Source of the DNA: Micrococcales bacterium
GTDB taxonomy: Bacteria; Actinomycetota; Actinomycetes; Actinomycetales; Dermatophilaceae
Length of the DNA: 64,000 bases
NCBI GenBank assembly: GCA_021287075.1
Contig: JAJTBD010000010.1
Span: 62,001 to 126,000 of the forward strand
Direction: 5' to 3'
Part shown: positions 1,795 to 64,000 of the stretch, one piece after another
How the letters are laid out: the number at the start of each line of letters is the position of its first letter
How positions within the stretch are numbered: position 1 is the first letter of the stretch
The notes under the pieces: model-generated
Told to the model about the DNA's origin: nothing
What the model saw: the letters and a program-made list of their open reading frames with translations, nothing else
Database searches by the model: none
Program-made: the position numbers and the translations under genes

Positions 1795-2043
1795 GGTGCT
1801 CCTTGGTCGAATCGACGTGCCGGGCGACAGGGGTCCTGTCACGGCACCGCGCGACCGGGCGGTGCCGGGTCGCGCGTCGTTGCCTTCCAAGTTTACGCGT
1901 CACGCGGGCCAGAACCCACCAAGCAAGGCCCCTGTGGACGGTTTTCCGGAGAAACTGCCCGGGTCCGTGACTCCCCATACCCATCCGGGTCCCTCAGCGC
2001 GCGCTAGGTGCGTTTTCGAGAGGTGCGGTATGCCGCCGGGCCG

Positions 2044-2330
2044 GTCGATCTGCATCACCGCGGCCCTGGGCTCGGTGACAAGCTCGCGGTTGCAGTTGCC
2101 CCCCTCGCGGCCGACGCCGCCGAAGGGGGTGCGCAGGTCGCCGATGACGAAGCAGTTGGCGATGCAGATGGGCCCGAAGATCTCCTCGCAGTAGGGCGCG
2201 GCGTCGAGGGCGAGCCGGTCGATGATGGTCGGCCGGACGACCCAGGAGCCGTCCTCGGCCACGCCGCCGGTGGGGCAGTTTCCCCCCAGCTCGCGGGCGC
2301 CCTCGACATGGGAGACGACCTTGTCGAAGT
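2044..2330 (-). pseudogene. Aldehyde dehydrogenase remnant
   Basis: On the minus strand a frame downstream of a TGA near 2335 reads FDKVVSHVEGA, then WVVRPTIIDRL, CEEIFGPICIAN, DLRTPFGGVGREGG and TEPRAAVMQID. These are C-terminal blocks of the aldehyde dehydrogenase superfamily (the EEIFGP motif and the PFGG..GREGG segment before the C-terminus), most like 2-hydroxymuconic-semialdehyde dehydrogenases. The N-terminal two thirds, with the catalytic Cys and Glu regions, are missing. The roughly 80 residues that normally separate EEIFGP from the PFGG block are deleted in frame. It has no plausible start and is therefore a decayed fragment. It sits between gyrB and a lipoprotein gene, a sign of past insertion or rearrangement. 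Confidence 0.75.
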
Positions 2331-2370
2331 GTCACTTGCTCGCCAGCGACGAGAAGCCGGGTCGACAGGC

Positions 2371-61225: not shown

Positions 61226-63607
61226 ATGAGCTCGTCGAAAACCCCTGCCCGGAAGAAGAAGTCACCGGCCGCCGCGGGCGGCGCCCGCCGGGGCCCACGG
61301 TTCCTCCCGAAGACCTGGCTCGGCCGCATCGGGGCCGCACTGCTCGGCCTCTTCCTCCTGGGCCTGGCCGCGATCGGTGTCGCCTTCGCGACCGTCGAGA
61401 TCCCCAAGCCCAATGACGTGGCGGTCGCGCAGACCTCGATCATCTACTACTCCGACGGCAAGACGGAGATGGACCGGATCAGCGACGTCAACCGCGAGAA
61501 CGTCGCCCTCTCCCGCGTGCCGCTGCACGTGCAGCGGGCGATGATCTCGGCCGAGGACCGCAGCTTCTACGAGAACAACGGCATCTCGCCCAAGGGCATC
61601 ATGCGCTCGGTCGTCGTGGGCATCCGCGGCGGCGAGAAGCAGGGTGGCTCGACGATCACCCAGCAGTACGTCAAGAACTACTTCCTCACCCAGGACCGCA
61701 CGATCAGCCGCAAGGTCAAGGAGATCCTGATCTCGGTCAAGATCGACGGCCAGCTCGACAAGAACAAGATCCTGGAGAACTACCTCAACACGATCTACTA
61801 CGGCCGCGGCGCCTATGGCATCCAGACGGCCTCCAAGGCCTACTTCAACAAGGACGTCAAGGACCTGACGGTGGAGGAGGGCGCGCTGCTGGCCTCGGTC
61901 ATCAACGCCCCCAACAACTTCGACCCGGGCCTGGGCGCCGCCCAGCGCAAGAACGCCGAGTCCCGCTTCGGCTATGTCATCTCGGGCATGCAGGCCAAGG
62001 GCTGGATCACGCCCGGCCAGGCGGCCTCGATGAAGTTCCCCGCGACCGCCAAGGCCAAGCCCTATCGCGGCATCGGCGGCCCGCGCGGCCACATCGTCAA
62101 GGCGATCAAGGACGAGCTCGAGGGCACCCTCAAGCTGACCCAGAAGGACATCGACACCGGCGGTCTGCGGATCGTCTCCACGATCGACAAGAAGCGCCAG
62201 ACCGCGGCCGAGGCCGCCATCAAGAAGCGGATGCCCGAGGACGCCGGCGACATCAAGATCGGCCTGGTCTCCACGGTGCCCGGCGACGGTGCGGTCGTGG
62301 CGATGTACGGCGGCGCCGACTATCTCAAGAACCAGTGGAATGCCGCCAAGGACGCCAAGCTCCAGGCCGGCTCGACCTTCAAGCCCTTCACGCTGATCGC
62401 CGGTCTCGAGCAGAAGATCGCCACCAGCACCGTCTACAGCGGGGCCTCGCCGCAGTACTTCCAGGAGTTCGCCGACTCCGGCGGCAAGACCGCGGCGGAG
62501 CGGGCCGGCCGGGTGAGCAACTTCGGCGGCCAAGGCTTCGGTGACATCAACCTGCGCACCGCCACCGCCAACTCGGTCAACACCGTCTACGCCAAGCTCA
62601 ACATCCGCGTCGGCCCCAAGAACACCGTGCGGGCGGCCCGCACCGCCGGGATCACCACGCCGCTGGGCGCCTACTACTCCAATGTCTTCGGCACCGACAC
62701 CGTCTCGGTCTGGGACATGGCCCGGGCCTACTCGACCATCGCGGCCGAGGGCAAGCGGACCACCCCCTACCTGGTCAAGAGCATCACCACCCAGGACAAG
62801 CACTTCAGCTACAAGCACAAGGTCCAGGCCAAGCAGGTCTTCGCCAAGCCCGTCATGGCCGACACCATCGACGCCATGGAGCGCGTGGTGACCGAGGGCT
62901 CGGGCACCTATGCCAGCCGCCTGGCGCGCCCCGTCGCCGGAAAGACCGGCACGACGACCAACAACTACGCCGCCTGGTTCAACGGCTTCACCCCGCAGCT
63001 GGAGACGGCGGTCGGGATGTACAAGGGCGACGGCACCCAGAAGCCGCAGAACCAGATGAAGAATGTCGGCGGCTACGCCGAGATCACCGGTGGCTCGATC
63101 CCGGTCCGGGTGTGGACCAGCTACATGCTCGAGGCCATGGACGGCGTCAAGTGGGAGGACTTCCCGCCGCGCGCCAACTGGGGCATCCCCGGCGGCACGG
63201 CCAGCCCGCAGCGGCTGCGCACCTGGACCCCGCGGCCCACCCAGAGGCAGACCCAGCAGTACACCCCCCGCGTGACCCCTCGGAAGACCACGTCGAGCTC
63301 GAAGACCTCGTCCTCCTCGTCGTCGACATCGACGAGCACGCCGACGACGGCCAAGCCGACCACCGCCAAGCCGACCACCACGCCGCCGCCCAAGAAGACG
63401 GCGACCAGCACGCCGCCACCCAAGAAGACGGCGACCAGCACGCCGCCGCCGAAGAAGACGTCGACCGCGCCGCCGCCCCCGCCCAAGCAGACGTCGACCG
63501 CGCCGCCGCCCCCGCCCAAGCAGACGACCACACCGCCGCCCCCGCCCAAGGCGACGCAGACGTCGGCCAAGGTGGCCTCGCCGGCAGTCGCGACCCCCGC
63601 GGGCTAG
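61226..63607 (+). CDS. Class A penicillin-binding protein (PonA-like)
   Basis: 793-residue bifunctional peptidoglycan synthase. A basic cytoplasmic N-terminus and one helix (IGAALLGLFLLGLAAIGVAF, ~32-52) precede a GT51 glycosyltransferase domain (SAEDRSFYENNGIS, QGGSTITQQYVKN, NTIYYGRGAYGIQ) and a transpeptidase domain with SxxK in AGSTFKPF, SVN in ANSVNTVY and KTGT in VAGKTGTTTN. The tail (~665-793) is Thr/Ser/Pro-rich with TPPPKKTATS repeats and no PASTA. ATG 61226 is chosen by similarity. It is next to padR, ino1 and the gene at 63611, as for mycobacterial ponA1. Confidence 0.95.
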   Translation: MSSSKTPARKKKSPAAAGGARRGPRFLPKTWLGRIGAALLGLFLLGLAAIGVAFATVEIPKPNDVAVAQTSIIYYSDGKTEMDRISDVNRENVALSRVPLHVQRAMISAEDRSFYENNGISPKGIMRSVVVGIRGGEKQGGSTITQQYVKNYFLTQDRTISRKVKEILISVKIDGQLDKNKILENYLNTIYYGRGAYGIQTASKAYFNKDVKDLTVEEGALLASVINAPNNFDPGLGAAQRKNAESRFGYVISGMQAKGWITPGQAASMKFPATAKAKPYRGIGGPRGHIVKAIKDELEGTLKLTQKDIDTGGLRIVSTIDKKRQTAAEAAIKKRMPEDAGDIKIGLVSTVPGDGAVVAMYGGADYLKNQWNAAKDAKLQAGSTFKPFTLIAGLEQKIATSTVYSGASPQYFQEFADSGGKTAAERAGRVSNFGGQGFGDINLRTATANSVNTVYAKLNIRVGPKNTVRAARTAGITTPLGAYYSNVFGTDTVSVWDMARAYSTIAAEGKRTTPYLVKSITTQDKHFSYKHKVQAKQVFAKPVMADTIDAMERVVTEGSGTYASRLARPVAGKTGTTTNNYAAWFNGFTPQLETAVGMYKGDGTQKPQNQMKNVGGYAEITGGSIPVRVWTSYMLEAMDGVKWEDFPPRANWGIPGGTASPQRLRTWTPRPTQRQTQQYTPRVTPRKTTSSSKTSSSSSSTSTSTPTTAKPTTAKPTTTPPPKKTATSTPPPKKTATSTPPPKKTSTAPPPPPKQTSTAPPPPPKQTTTPPPPPKATQTSAKVASPAVATPAG

Positions 63608-63610
63608 CCC

Positions 63611-64000
63611 ATGAGCGACCGCTTCGTCGAGCGCAGCCTGACCGTCGCGGGCGGCCCGCTGGGGCGGCACGCGTCGGCGCGGGCGCGCGGCATACCGGCC
63701 CTGCTCTCGGTGCTCTCCCTCGGCGTCGCGGGCACGATGGCGCTCGGGGTGGTCCAGCGCGGCCACTGCATCGCCAACGGGTGGAGCGGCAGCGACCAGT
63801 TCTCCCGGATGTGCTTCTCGGACCTGGTCTCGCAGTACGAGCTCTCCCAGCTCTCGACCGGCGTGGGCGGGTGGATCGACGGTCCAGGGCGACTGGACCA
63901 GCCGCCCCTGACGGCGGCCGTCATGGCCCTGCTCGGCGGGCTGACGCCCGGCGCGGGCGCCGACGCCTCCCTCTTCTACTTCCTCAGCTGGGTCGTCCTG
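63611..64000 (+). CDS. Membrane protein, probably mannosyltransferase-like (3' end outside window)
   Basis: The first 130 codons only. After a short N-terminus there is a hydrophobic helix (LLSVLSLGVAGTMALGVV), then a loop with HCIANGW and FSRMCFSDL, and PPLTAAVMALLG before the window ends. Pattern and position directly after the class A PBP match the DUF2029/GT-C-type membrane protein after ponA1 (Rv0051) in mycobacteria. Glycosyltransferase function is inferred from that context. ATG lies three bases after the PBP stop codon. Confidence 0.7.
   Translation, partial: MSDRFVERSLTVAGGPLGRHASARARGIPALLSVLSLGVAGTMALGVVQRGHCIANGWSGSDQFSRMCFSDLVSQYELSQLSTGVGGWIDGPGRLDQPPLTAAVMALLGGLTPGAGADASLFYFLSWVVL

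What the first reader, a model, noticed from the sequence alone, without database searches (positions are those of the whole stretch)
2028..63695. A 9-mer, GTATGCCGC, is massively over-represented and marks almost every intergenic gap
Hand count: 44 exact copies (26 forward, 18 reverse), versus about one expected at roughly 70% GC by my estimate. About 20 lie in noncoding DNA although that is only about a tenth of the window. Nearly every gap over 60 bases has an exact copy or the GTATGCCGT variant (about 19 more). Examples: 2028, 6960, 8231, 9782, 12024, 15090, 19520, 24788, 29132, 41901, 53768. Coding copies read mostly Tyr-Ala-Ala or Ala-Ala-Tyr. There is no clear strand polarity relative to oriC, arguing against a KOPS or Chi role. 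Over-abundance plus inverted pairs in terminators recalls Neisseria DUS and Haemophilus USS; nucleoid-protein binding or methylase recognition are alternatives.
Basis: partly seen in the sequence, partly recalled or inferred. Interest (0 to 1): 0.85.

Follow-up and report, generated by a model that had tools for sequence, protein, structure and literature searches.

The report
DNA-uptake signal words in Actinobacteria
This actinobacterial genome carries about 3,100 copies of one eight-letter DNA word, evenly spaced on each strand, and some sister genera carry thousands of copies of a one-letter variant instead; the word likely works as a password by which cells would recognise and take up DNA of their own kind, a trick known from two families of Gram-negative bacteria.

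Summary
In detail: 44 GTATGCCGC in the window (0.34 expected), 2,311 in the genome (reversed-word control 35), and 3,097 copies of the core GTATGCCG. Codon choice does not explain it (159 coding copies; synonymous shuffles give 20 +/- 4). Copies are 4 times denser between genes, and inverted pairs form hairpins just past stop codons. Strands are balanced in 7 of 7 contigs. Same-strand copies avoid each other below about 500 bases; opposite-strand copies do not. The two longest copy-free stretches in 602 kb hold mobile elements. The word is confined to one family, placed here as Dermatophilaceae; sister genera use one-letter variants or none. A second family has GGATGCCG up to 6,838 times, and 4 of 25 species tested use GGATCCGC instead, but there without intergenic excess or clear tiling. 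This resembles DNA uptake sequences and their dialects. The genome has comEA/comEC and two Tad pilus clusters, as in transformable Micrococcus luteus. Uptake is not shown, no receptor was found, and pilus gene presence does not track the word. RecBCD-Chi fails as a general explanation.

The parts
2028..2035 (+). core word GTATGCCG (CC follows), coding
2607..2614 (-). core word, CG follows, coding
2733..2740 (-). core word, CG follows, coding
3220..3227 (+). core word, TC follows, intergenic
5839..5846 (+). core word, CG follows, coding
6960..6967 (+). core word, CG follows, intergenic
8232..8239 (-). core word, CG follows, intergenic
9388..9395 (-). core word, TG follows, coding
9770..9777 (-). 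core word, TG follows, intergenic
9782..9789 (+). core word, CG follows, intergenic
10199..10206 (+). core word, CG follows, intergenic
12024..12031 (+). core word, CG follows, intergenic
12672..12679 (-). core word, CG follows, coding
12949..12956 (-). core word, AG follows, intergenic
15091..15098 (-). core word, CT follows, intergenic
15181..15188 (-). core word, TC follows, intergenic
15286..15293 (+). core word, CC follows, coding
17803..17810 (+). core word, CG follows, coding
17850..17857 (-). core word, CG follows, coding
19520..19527 (+). core word, CG follows, intergenic
19594..19601 (-). core word, CG follows, intergenic
20553..20560 (-). core word, CG follows, coding
20830..20837 (+). 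core word, TG follows, coding
21322..21329 (-). core word, CT follows, coding
23266..23273 (+). core word, CG follows, coding
23782..23789 (-). core word, CG follows, coding
24788..24795 (+). core word, CG follows, intergenic
24845..24852 (+). core word, CG follows, intergenic
25481..25488 (-). core word, TG follows, coding
26277..26284 (+). core word, CG follows, coding
27573..27601 (.). inverted pair of core words (27573 + and 27594 -), intergenic hairpin
29132..29139 (+). core word, CC follows, intergenic
31115..31122 (+). core word, CG follows, coding
32398..32405 (-). core word, CG follows, coding
33704..33711 (-). core word, AG follows, coding
34167..34191 (.). inverted pair of core words (34167 + and 34184 -) inside a predicted gene
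36468..36475 (+). core word, CG follows, coding
37252..37259 (+). core word, TG follows, intergenic
38037..38044 (-). core word, TC follows, coding
39465..39472 (+). core word, TG follows, coding
40820..40827 (-). core word, TG follows, coding
41902..41909 (-). core word, CG follows, intergenic
43009..43016 (+). core word, CG follows, coding
44578..44585 (-). core word, TC follows, coding
46003..46010 (+). core word, TG follows, coding
47343..47350 (-). core word, TG follows, coding
48451..48458 (-). core word, TG follows, intergenic
49521..49528 (+). core word, CC follows, coding
50593..50600 (+). core word, CG follows, coding
51335..51342 (-). core word, TG follows, coding
51612..51619 (+). 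core word, TG follows, coding
52656..52663 (+). core word, CG follows, coding
53769..53776 (-). core word, CC follows, intergenic
54719..54726 (+). core word, CC follows, coding
57387..57422 (.). inverted pair of core words (57387 + and 57415 -), intergenic hairpin
58241..58248 (+). core word, CG follows, coding
59094..59129 (.). inverted pair of core words (59094 + and 59122 -), intergenic hairpin between convergent genes
60298..60305 (+). core word, TG follows, intergenic
60339..60346 (+). core word, TG follows, coding
61129..61136 (-). core word, TG follows, intergenic
63688..63695 (-). core word, CG follows, coding

Best explanation
The word GTATGCCG(C/T)G, whose core GTATGCCG is present 3,097 times in this genome, most likely acts as a DNA uptake signal that a receptor on the competence machinery would bind, so that DNA of the same kind is preferentially taken up by natural transformation. 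Shown here: abundance, strand-by-strand even spacing, hairpin pairs behind genes, absence from the two largest mobile islands, and replacement by one-letter variants in sister genera. Shown: the genome encodes ComEA, ComEC and two Tad/Flp pilus clusters, the parts that Micrococcus luteus needs for transformation. Inferred: (1) a pilin or other surface protein reads the word in one orientation; (2) uptake biased to word-bearing fragments, followed by homologous recombination, spreads and maintains copies; (3) same-strand copies repel each other because a second copy reading the same way within the same fragment adds nothing, whereas one reading the other way does; (4) a change of receptor specificity shifts the word, giving dialects, and its loss lets copies decay; (5) intergenic pairs were taken over secondarily as transcription terminators.
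For: Abundance and control. Not codon choice. Intergenic density 25.8 against 6.1 per 10 kb. 38 intergenic inverted pairs within 60 bases, 31 of 38 within 45 bases after a stop codon of a gene that reads into them; pairs facing each other within 100 bases 48 against 10.6 expected. No polarity. Same-strand tiling: gap CV 0.737 against a minimum of 0.877 in 1,000 random placements, neighbours opposite in 283 of 432 against at most 0.586 in 1,000 strand-label shuffles; neighbours mostly opposite in 17 of 18 genomes sampled. Copy-free islands are mobile elements. One-letter dialects in sister genera; whole-genome counts of GGATGCCG in G016 and G026. ComEC in 33 of 36 family genomes; ComEA beside ComEC; two Tad clusters. 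Both tad clusters needed for transformation in M. luteus: PMC4322843, section 8. Dialects and inverted-pair terminators are described for DUS: PMC3630211, passages.
Against: No uptake experiment exists for this family. ComEC and ComEA are also present in family members without any word found. Pilus gene presence does not track the word: word-free G002, G008, G009 and G010 have both Tad ATPase types, and 9 of 80 genomes of a word-rich genus in the second family lack the second type. No residue of the Tad pilins was seen to follow the dialect in a small comparison by eye (whose output was cut, and 71). No type IVa pilus, the kind that carries the Neisseria receptor, in G000. In the second family the word is not enriched between genes, forms few hairpins and is not clearly tiled (G143 CV 1.02), so its inclusion is weaker. 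No bias towards gene ends, unlike Pasteurellaceae.
Confidence: 0.6

Rival explanations
1. A Chi-like signal: a recombination helicase-nuclease (AdnAB in these bacteria) would switch mode at the word, so that either end of a broken chromosome meets a correctly oriented copy within a few kilobases.
For: Directional tiling on each strand is what equal protection of both DNA ends would favour; Chi words also differ between species (recalled).
Against: E. coli K-12 Chi behaves in the opposite way in the same test: strand bias 6 to 32 in one region, neighbours opposite in 30 and same in 58, same-strand CV 1.66 (90 sites in 350 kb). RecC, hence RecBCD, is absent from 29 of 29 genomes of the second family and from 24 of 37 of the first, many of them word-rich, and present in four word-free ones; it is present in G000 itself. 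AdnAB was not tested. Hairpin pairs and complete absence in several sister genera are not expected.
Confidence: 0.13
2. A binding site for a nucleoid or chromosome-organising protein that needs one site per strand every 2 kb.
For: Even spacing; abundance; sparing of mobile islands; different words could follow changes in the protein.
Against: The core is not palindromic and opposite-strand copies do not repel; several genera of the family manage without any word found; Karlin's similar proposal for USS is disputed in PMC1939737 (passages). No candidate protein was looked for.
Confidence: 0.14
3. A DNA methylation or restriction recognition site, or an unexplained abundant word such as cyanobacterial HIP1 (recalled).
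For: Short sharp core with few near variants; GGATCCGC in the second family is close to palindromic.
Against: Recognition alone does not raise a word 66-fold, and restriction usually lowers it (established knowledge); directional tiling has no reason under this reading. No methylation data were available.
Confidence: 0.08
4. The word is primarily a transcription terminator or REP-like hairpin element.
For: 38 intergenic hairpin pairs, mostly just behind stop codons.
Against: Most copies are single and 323 of 511 lie in coding sequence; no Rfam family in the window.
Confidence: 0.03
5. KOPS-like loading sites or codon and mutation bias.
For: Coding copies sit mostly in two reading contexts.
Against: Balanced strands in 7 of 7 contigs; 159 against 20 +/- 4 under synonymous shuffling; 25.8 per 10 kb between genes.
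Confidence: 0.02

Closest known systems
Neisseriaceae DNA uptake sequence (DUS) and its dialects
   Same: Thousands of copies of a sharp non-palindromic word, no strand polarity, intergenic excess, inverted pairs behind genes, related words in related species (PMC3630211, passages). The Neisseria word ATGCCGTCTGAA (PMC2346458) even shares ATGCCG(T) with GTATGCCGTG, which may be chance.
   Different: High-GC Gram-positive Actinobacteria without outer membrane; no type IVa pilus or ComP-like minor pilin found in G000; uptake not tested; the essential CTG core of DUS is missing.
Pasteurellaceae uptake signal sequence (USS)
   Same: About two thirds of copies in genes (65% for H. influenzae in PMC1939737, passages; 323 of 511 here); significant even spacing reported by Karlin and colleagues (same passages).
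   Different: Unrelated word; no bias to gene ends here (PMC2346458, part 1 of 3 read); tiling is seen per strand here.
Micrococcus luteus Flp/Tad-pilus transformation
   Same: comEA/comEC plus two tad clusters, all needed in M. luteus (PMC4322843, section 8), are present in G000.
   Different: The passages of PMC4322843 seen do not contain the term uptake sequence; whether this family is transformable is unknown.
E. coli Chi
   Same: Abundant short directional word.
   Different: Strand bias, clustering by strand and no tiling in the same test.

Membership tests
DNA uptake sequence (DUS/USS) | Massive genome-wide over-representation not due to codon use | tested here: met
DNA uptake sequence (DUS/USS) | No orientation bias along the chromosome | tested here: met
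   7 of 7 contigs balanced
DNA uptake sequence (DUS/USS) | Inverted pairs as hairpins behind genes | tested here: met
   38 intergenic pairs, 31 within 45 bases after a stop codon
DNA uptake sequence (DUS/USS) | Related dialects in related species | tested here: met
   one-letter variants in sister genera; some weak (G001, G019, G024)
DNA uptake sequence (DUS/USS) | Competence machinery encoded | tested here: met
   ComEA, ComEC, two Tad clusters in G000
DNA uptake sequence (DUS/USS) | Competence gene presence tracks the word | tested here: not met
   ComEC also in word-free genera; Tad ATPases do not track it. This is a supporting, not a defining, feature of DUS, but it weakens the pilus link
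DNA uptake sequence (DUS/USS) | Word raises binding, uptake or transformation of DNA | not testable with these tools
   needs transformation assays
DNA uptake sequence (DUS/USS) | Specific receptor such as ComP | tested here: inconclusive
   no type IVa pilin in G000; Tad pilins compared without a clear candidate
Chi | Orientation bias with replication, RecBCD or AddAB/AdnAB partner | tested here: not met
   no bias; RecC absent from many word-rich genomes; AdnAB not tested
KOPS | Strong polarity towards the terminus | tested here: not met
REP-like palindromic element | Copies are intergenic hairpins | tested here: not met
   323 of 511 copies are in coding sequence

The most novel reading that the evidence does not exclude
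Actinobacteria of at least two families run a DNA self-recognition system for natural transformation, read by a Tad/Flp-type competence pilus, with genome-wide passwords that differ between sister genera and even switch within one genus (GGATGCCG to GGATCCGC), so setting barriers to gene exchange; it would be an uptake-signal system in Gram-positive bacteria that arose independently of those of Neisseriaceae and Pasteurellaceae.
Probability: 0.45. Interest if true: 0.95.

Novelty: new variant of a known kind. Interest (0 to 1): 0.83.

Why it matters
Uptake signals are known from two Gram-negative families and are the clearest case of bacteria choosing their mates in gene exchange. If the words found here work in that way, the habit would have arisen independently in Gram-positive bacteria, on a different kind of pilus, and with many natural dialects. 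The roughly 100 genomes of one genus counted here, with a switch of word in four of 25 tested, would make the long-open questions of how such words start, spread and change, and what reads them, directly testable. It would also give a practical handle for transforming environmental Actinobacteria.

Tried and rejected
Codon choice, KOPS and terminator-only readings were rejected on counts. RecBCD-Chi was rejected as a general explanation. A bias of copies towards gene ends was sought and not found. The gene finder did not train on G002 and G014 (lower GC), so for these two only raw word counts were used. GTACGCCG as a dialect is doubtful in G024 and G019, and GGATGCCG in G001; GTACGCCG is also raised in an unrelated Frankiaceae MAG. 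Tree labels of G005, G030 and G031 rest counts only; the tree is of one gene, with 7 of 28 branches well supported. Literature: searched an open-access library only; the rows listed (some lists were capped) show no uptake word in Actinobacteria; subscription papers and preprint servers were not covered.
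Full report
OBSERVATION. GTATGCCGC occurs 44 times in the window, 26 forward and 18 reverse, where dinucleotide shuffles give 0.34 and never more than 3. The best-defined form is GTATGCCG followed mostly by CG or TG: 65 cores in the window, of which 44 continue with C, 19 with T and 2 with A. The core is sharp: in the window 65 copies of GTATGCCG stand against 0 to 11 of each one-letter variant, and 36 of GTATGCCGCG against 0 to 2 of each variant except GTATGCCGTG (15) and GTATGCCGCC (6). 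In the whole genome, G000 (3,556,373 bases, 43 contigs), GTATGCCGC occurs 1,152 times forward and 1,159 reverse, the same word read backwards 35 times; GTATGCCG occurs 3,097 times against 116 for its reversed control.

NOT CODON CHOICE. I predicted genes with a simple codon-usage finder (no annotation is available), on 261 kb first and 602 kb later. In 216 predicted coding sequences 159 cores are seen; shuffling synonymous codons within each gene leaves 20.2 on average, 31 at most in 200 shuffles. In 602 kb, 323 cores lie in coding sequence (6.1 per 10 kb) and 188 between genes (25.8 per 10 kb); 122 of 265 gaps of 60 bases or more hold one.

GEOMETRY. Each of seven contigs or large parts of contigs has balanced strands (28/26, 26/27, 59/60, 33/33, 58/59, 33/27, 22/20), although four parS-like sites at 15009-16738 suggest that the window lies near the origin (that GTTTCACGTGAAAC is parS is recalled). 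Copies on the same strand are spread evenly: in 601,883 bases with 511 cores the coefficient of variation of same-strand gaps is 0.737, below all of 1,000 random placements (minimum 0.877); there are 32 gaps under 500 bases where 97 are expected, while gaps of 500-1,000 bases are within the random range. Neighbours more than 100 bases apart are on opposite strands in 283 of 432 cases; with strand labels shuffled the fraction never exceeds 0.586 in 1,000. Opposite-strand copies do not repel. Of 52 other 8-mers of similar number (some of them shifted versions of the word itself) the mean opposite fraction is 0.488 and mean CV 1.085. In 17 of 18 genomes sampled in the family, neighbours are more often opposite (G035 is the exception) and the CV is below 1 in 16 of 18 (G035 and G001 are not), though the samples are small. 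E. coli K-12 Chi as a yardstick shows the reverse: 31/21 and 6/32 strands in two regions, 30 opposite and 58 same neighbours, CV 1.66.

HAIRPINS. Facing pairs within 100 bases number 48 where 10.6 are expected; back-to-back pairs 18 against 10.9. Of the facing pairs within 60 bases 38 are intergenic and 6 coding; the intergenic ones fold at -13 to -51 kcal/mol, and 31 of 38 start within 45 bases after the stop codon of a gene that reads into them. In the window these are at 27573, 57387 and 59094; 17803 and 34167 are inside predicted genes.

MOBILE DNA. The two longest copy-free stretches in the 602 kb are C2:1-16762, which holds TniQ, TniB and integrase-core genes with an Abi and an RHS gene next to dnaB, and C30:43978-56881 (L237:1977-14880), which holds a serine recombinase and a type I restriction system at 63.6% GC. 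Other large gaps were not examined.

WHO HAS IT. Of 35 other genera of the same family, 22 have 117 to 2,005 copies of GTATGCCGC and 13 have 1 to 56; 22 genomes of other families of the order have 1 to 48, like their controls. Of 191 genomes outside the family sampled across the class, none comes near (highest 386 cores with a control of 176). NCBI puts these in Intrasporangiaceae and Dermacoccaceae; the joint GTDB family name Dermatophilaceae is recalled. In single named loci of 11 to 21 kb the word is dense in Phycicoccus elongatus (20 cores), Knoellia remsis, Ornithinimicrobium cavernae, Humibacillus and Terrabacter, and absent from Phycicoccus jejuensis, Janibacter indicus, Intrasporangium flavum and Dermacoccus abyssi.

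DIALECTS. In 20 to 262 kb samples (602 kb for G000) of 30 family genomes I asked which one-letter neighbours of the core exceed both synonymous shuffles in genes and base composition between genes (raw counts). Fourteen use GTATGCCG, three of them with GTATGACG, GTATGGCG or GTATGTCG beside it (G003, G004, G027) and G018 with GTATGCGG beside it. Others use GGATGCCG (G016, G026; weakly G001), GTACGCCG (G023; weakly G019, G024), GTATGCGG (G020) or GAATGCCG with GTATGCCG (G012). Eight show none (G002, G006, G008, G009, G010, G013, G014, G028; G006 and G028 from 20 kb only, G002 and G014 from raw counts only). Whole-genome counts confirm GGATGCCG in G026 (3,949; control 289) and G016 (3,816; control 392). 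On a one-gene tree of 31 of these genomes the labels need 11 changes (shuffled mean 16.4, none of 200 as low), with neighbours of different word such as G015 (GTATGCCG) and G026 (GGATGCCG), whose sister G028 has none. All this resembles the eight DUS dialects of Neisseriaceae (PMC3630211, passages).

A SECOND FAMILY. GGATGCCG occurs 1,532 to 4,831 times in six of seven genomes first counted in family f19 and 477 to 6,838 times in 99 genomes of its genus g59, 88 of them with 1,372 or more and 11 with 1,114 or fewer. I take f19 to be Microbacteriaceae because two Leifsonia loci carry similar words; this is not confirmed. Of the 11 low ones, four (G172, G291, G298, G339) carry GGATCCGC 2,514 to 3,019 times, while the other 30 of 34 genomes counted have 137 to 581; G273 has CGGATGGC raised in a 60-kb sample (35 against 8.2). 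Against including this family: in G143 and G331 the word is not denser between genes (5 in 10.3 kb and 2 in 3.2 kb), facing pairs are few, and tiling is unclear (CV 1.02 and 0.79). The coding excess over synonymous shuffles is 4 to 5 fold.

MACHINERY. ComEC is found in 33 of 36 family genomes; the three misses are fragmented assemblies. ComEA, with SLBB and helix-hairpin-helix domains, lies just upstream. G000 has a tad cluster with ATPase, TadB, TadC and three TadE-like or Tad-like proteins (L205:9892-14570) and a second one beside a DUF4244 Flp-like pilin (L206:5863-13002). [quoted passage not shown] Against a simple link: word-free G002, G008, G009 and G010 have both ATPase types; G006, G013 and G014 lack the second type and G028 has it split; word-rich G007 also has it split; and 9 of 80 g59 genomes, all word-rich, lack it. 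No pilin difference followed the dialect.

MECHANISM. I read the word as an uptake signal kept in place by biased uptake and recombination. Same-strand repulsion says that the word acts in one direction over some hundreds of bases to 1 kb; this is inferred. A Chi-like signal of AdnAB would also act in one direction and is the strongest rival with a nucleoid protein. RecBCD cannot be the general partner: RecC is found in 13 of 37 genomes of the first family, G000 among them, and in 0 of 29 of the second.

NOVELTY. The searches list no paper on such a word in Actinobacteria; the library is open-access only and several lists were capped.

Noticed in passing
window 15009-16738: Four perfect GTTTCACGTGAAAC sites (none expected), the parS consensus as recalled; the replication origin is probably near.
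   Followed up: partly
G028:C23:365987-401681, G007:C43:9386-21350 (also G268, G285, G004): A Tad pilus ATPase gene is found as two halves (or one half) split near residue 190, 35 kb apart in G028 and 11 kb apart in G007: it looks like an integration site of mobile elements inside a pilus gene.
   Followed up: no
L044:995-14018 and L237:1977-14880 (outside the window): Two mobile islands of G000: a TniB/TniQ-type transposon with Abi and RHS genes beside dnaB, and a serine-recombinase island with a type I restriction system. Neither holds the word.
   Followed up: partly
L145, L147 (Kribbella), L125 (Frankiaceae MAG), L177 (Hamadaea): Single 20-kb loci show raised GTACGTCG/GTACGACG, GTACGCCG or CGTACGCG over synonymous shuffles; perhaps further words of this kind in other actinobacterial families.
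   Followed up: no
L039 near 7660: The predicted comEA start codon lies inside a copy of the word (GGTATGCCGCG).
   Followed up: no
L250 (G172): In a species that switched to GGATCCGC, genes resembling an insertion sequence follow the ATPase and TadBC genes of one Tad cluster where others have the Flp and TadE genes.
   Followed up: no
window 37651-48418: Two giant genes (1,406 and 2,113 aa) of bacterial Ig, cadherin-like and fibronectin III domains, tiled by the word at about 1.1-1.6 kb with mostly alternating strands.
   Followed up: partly
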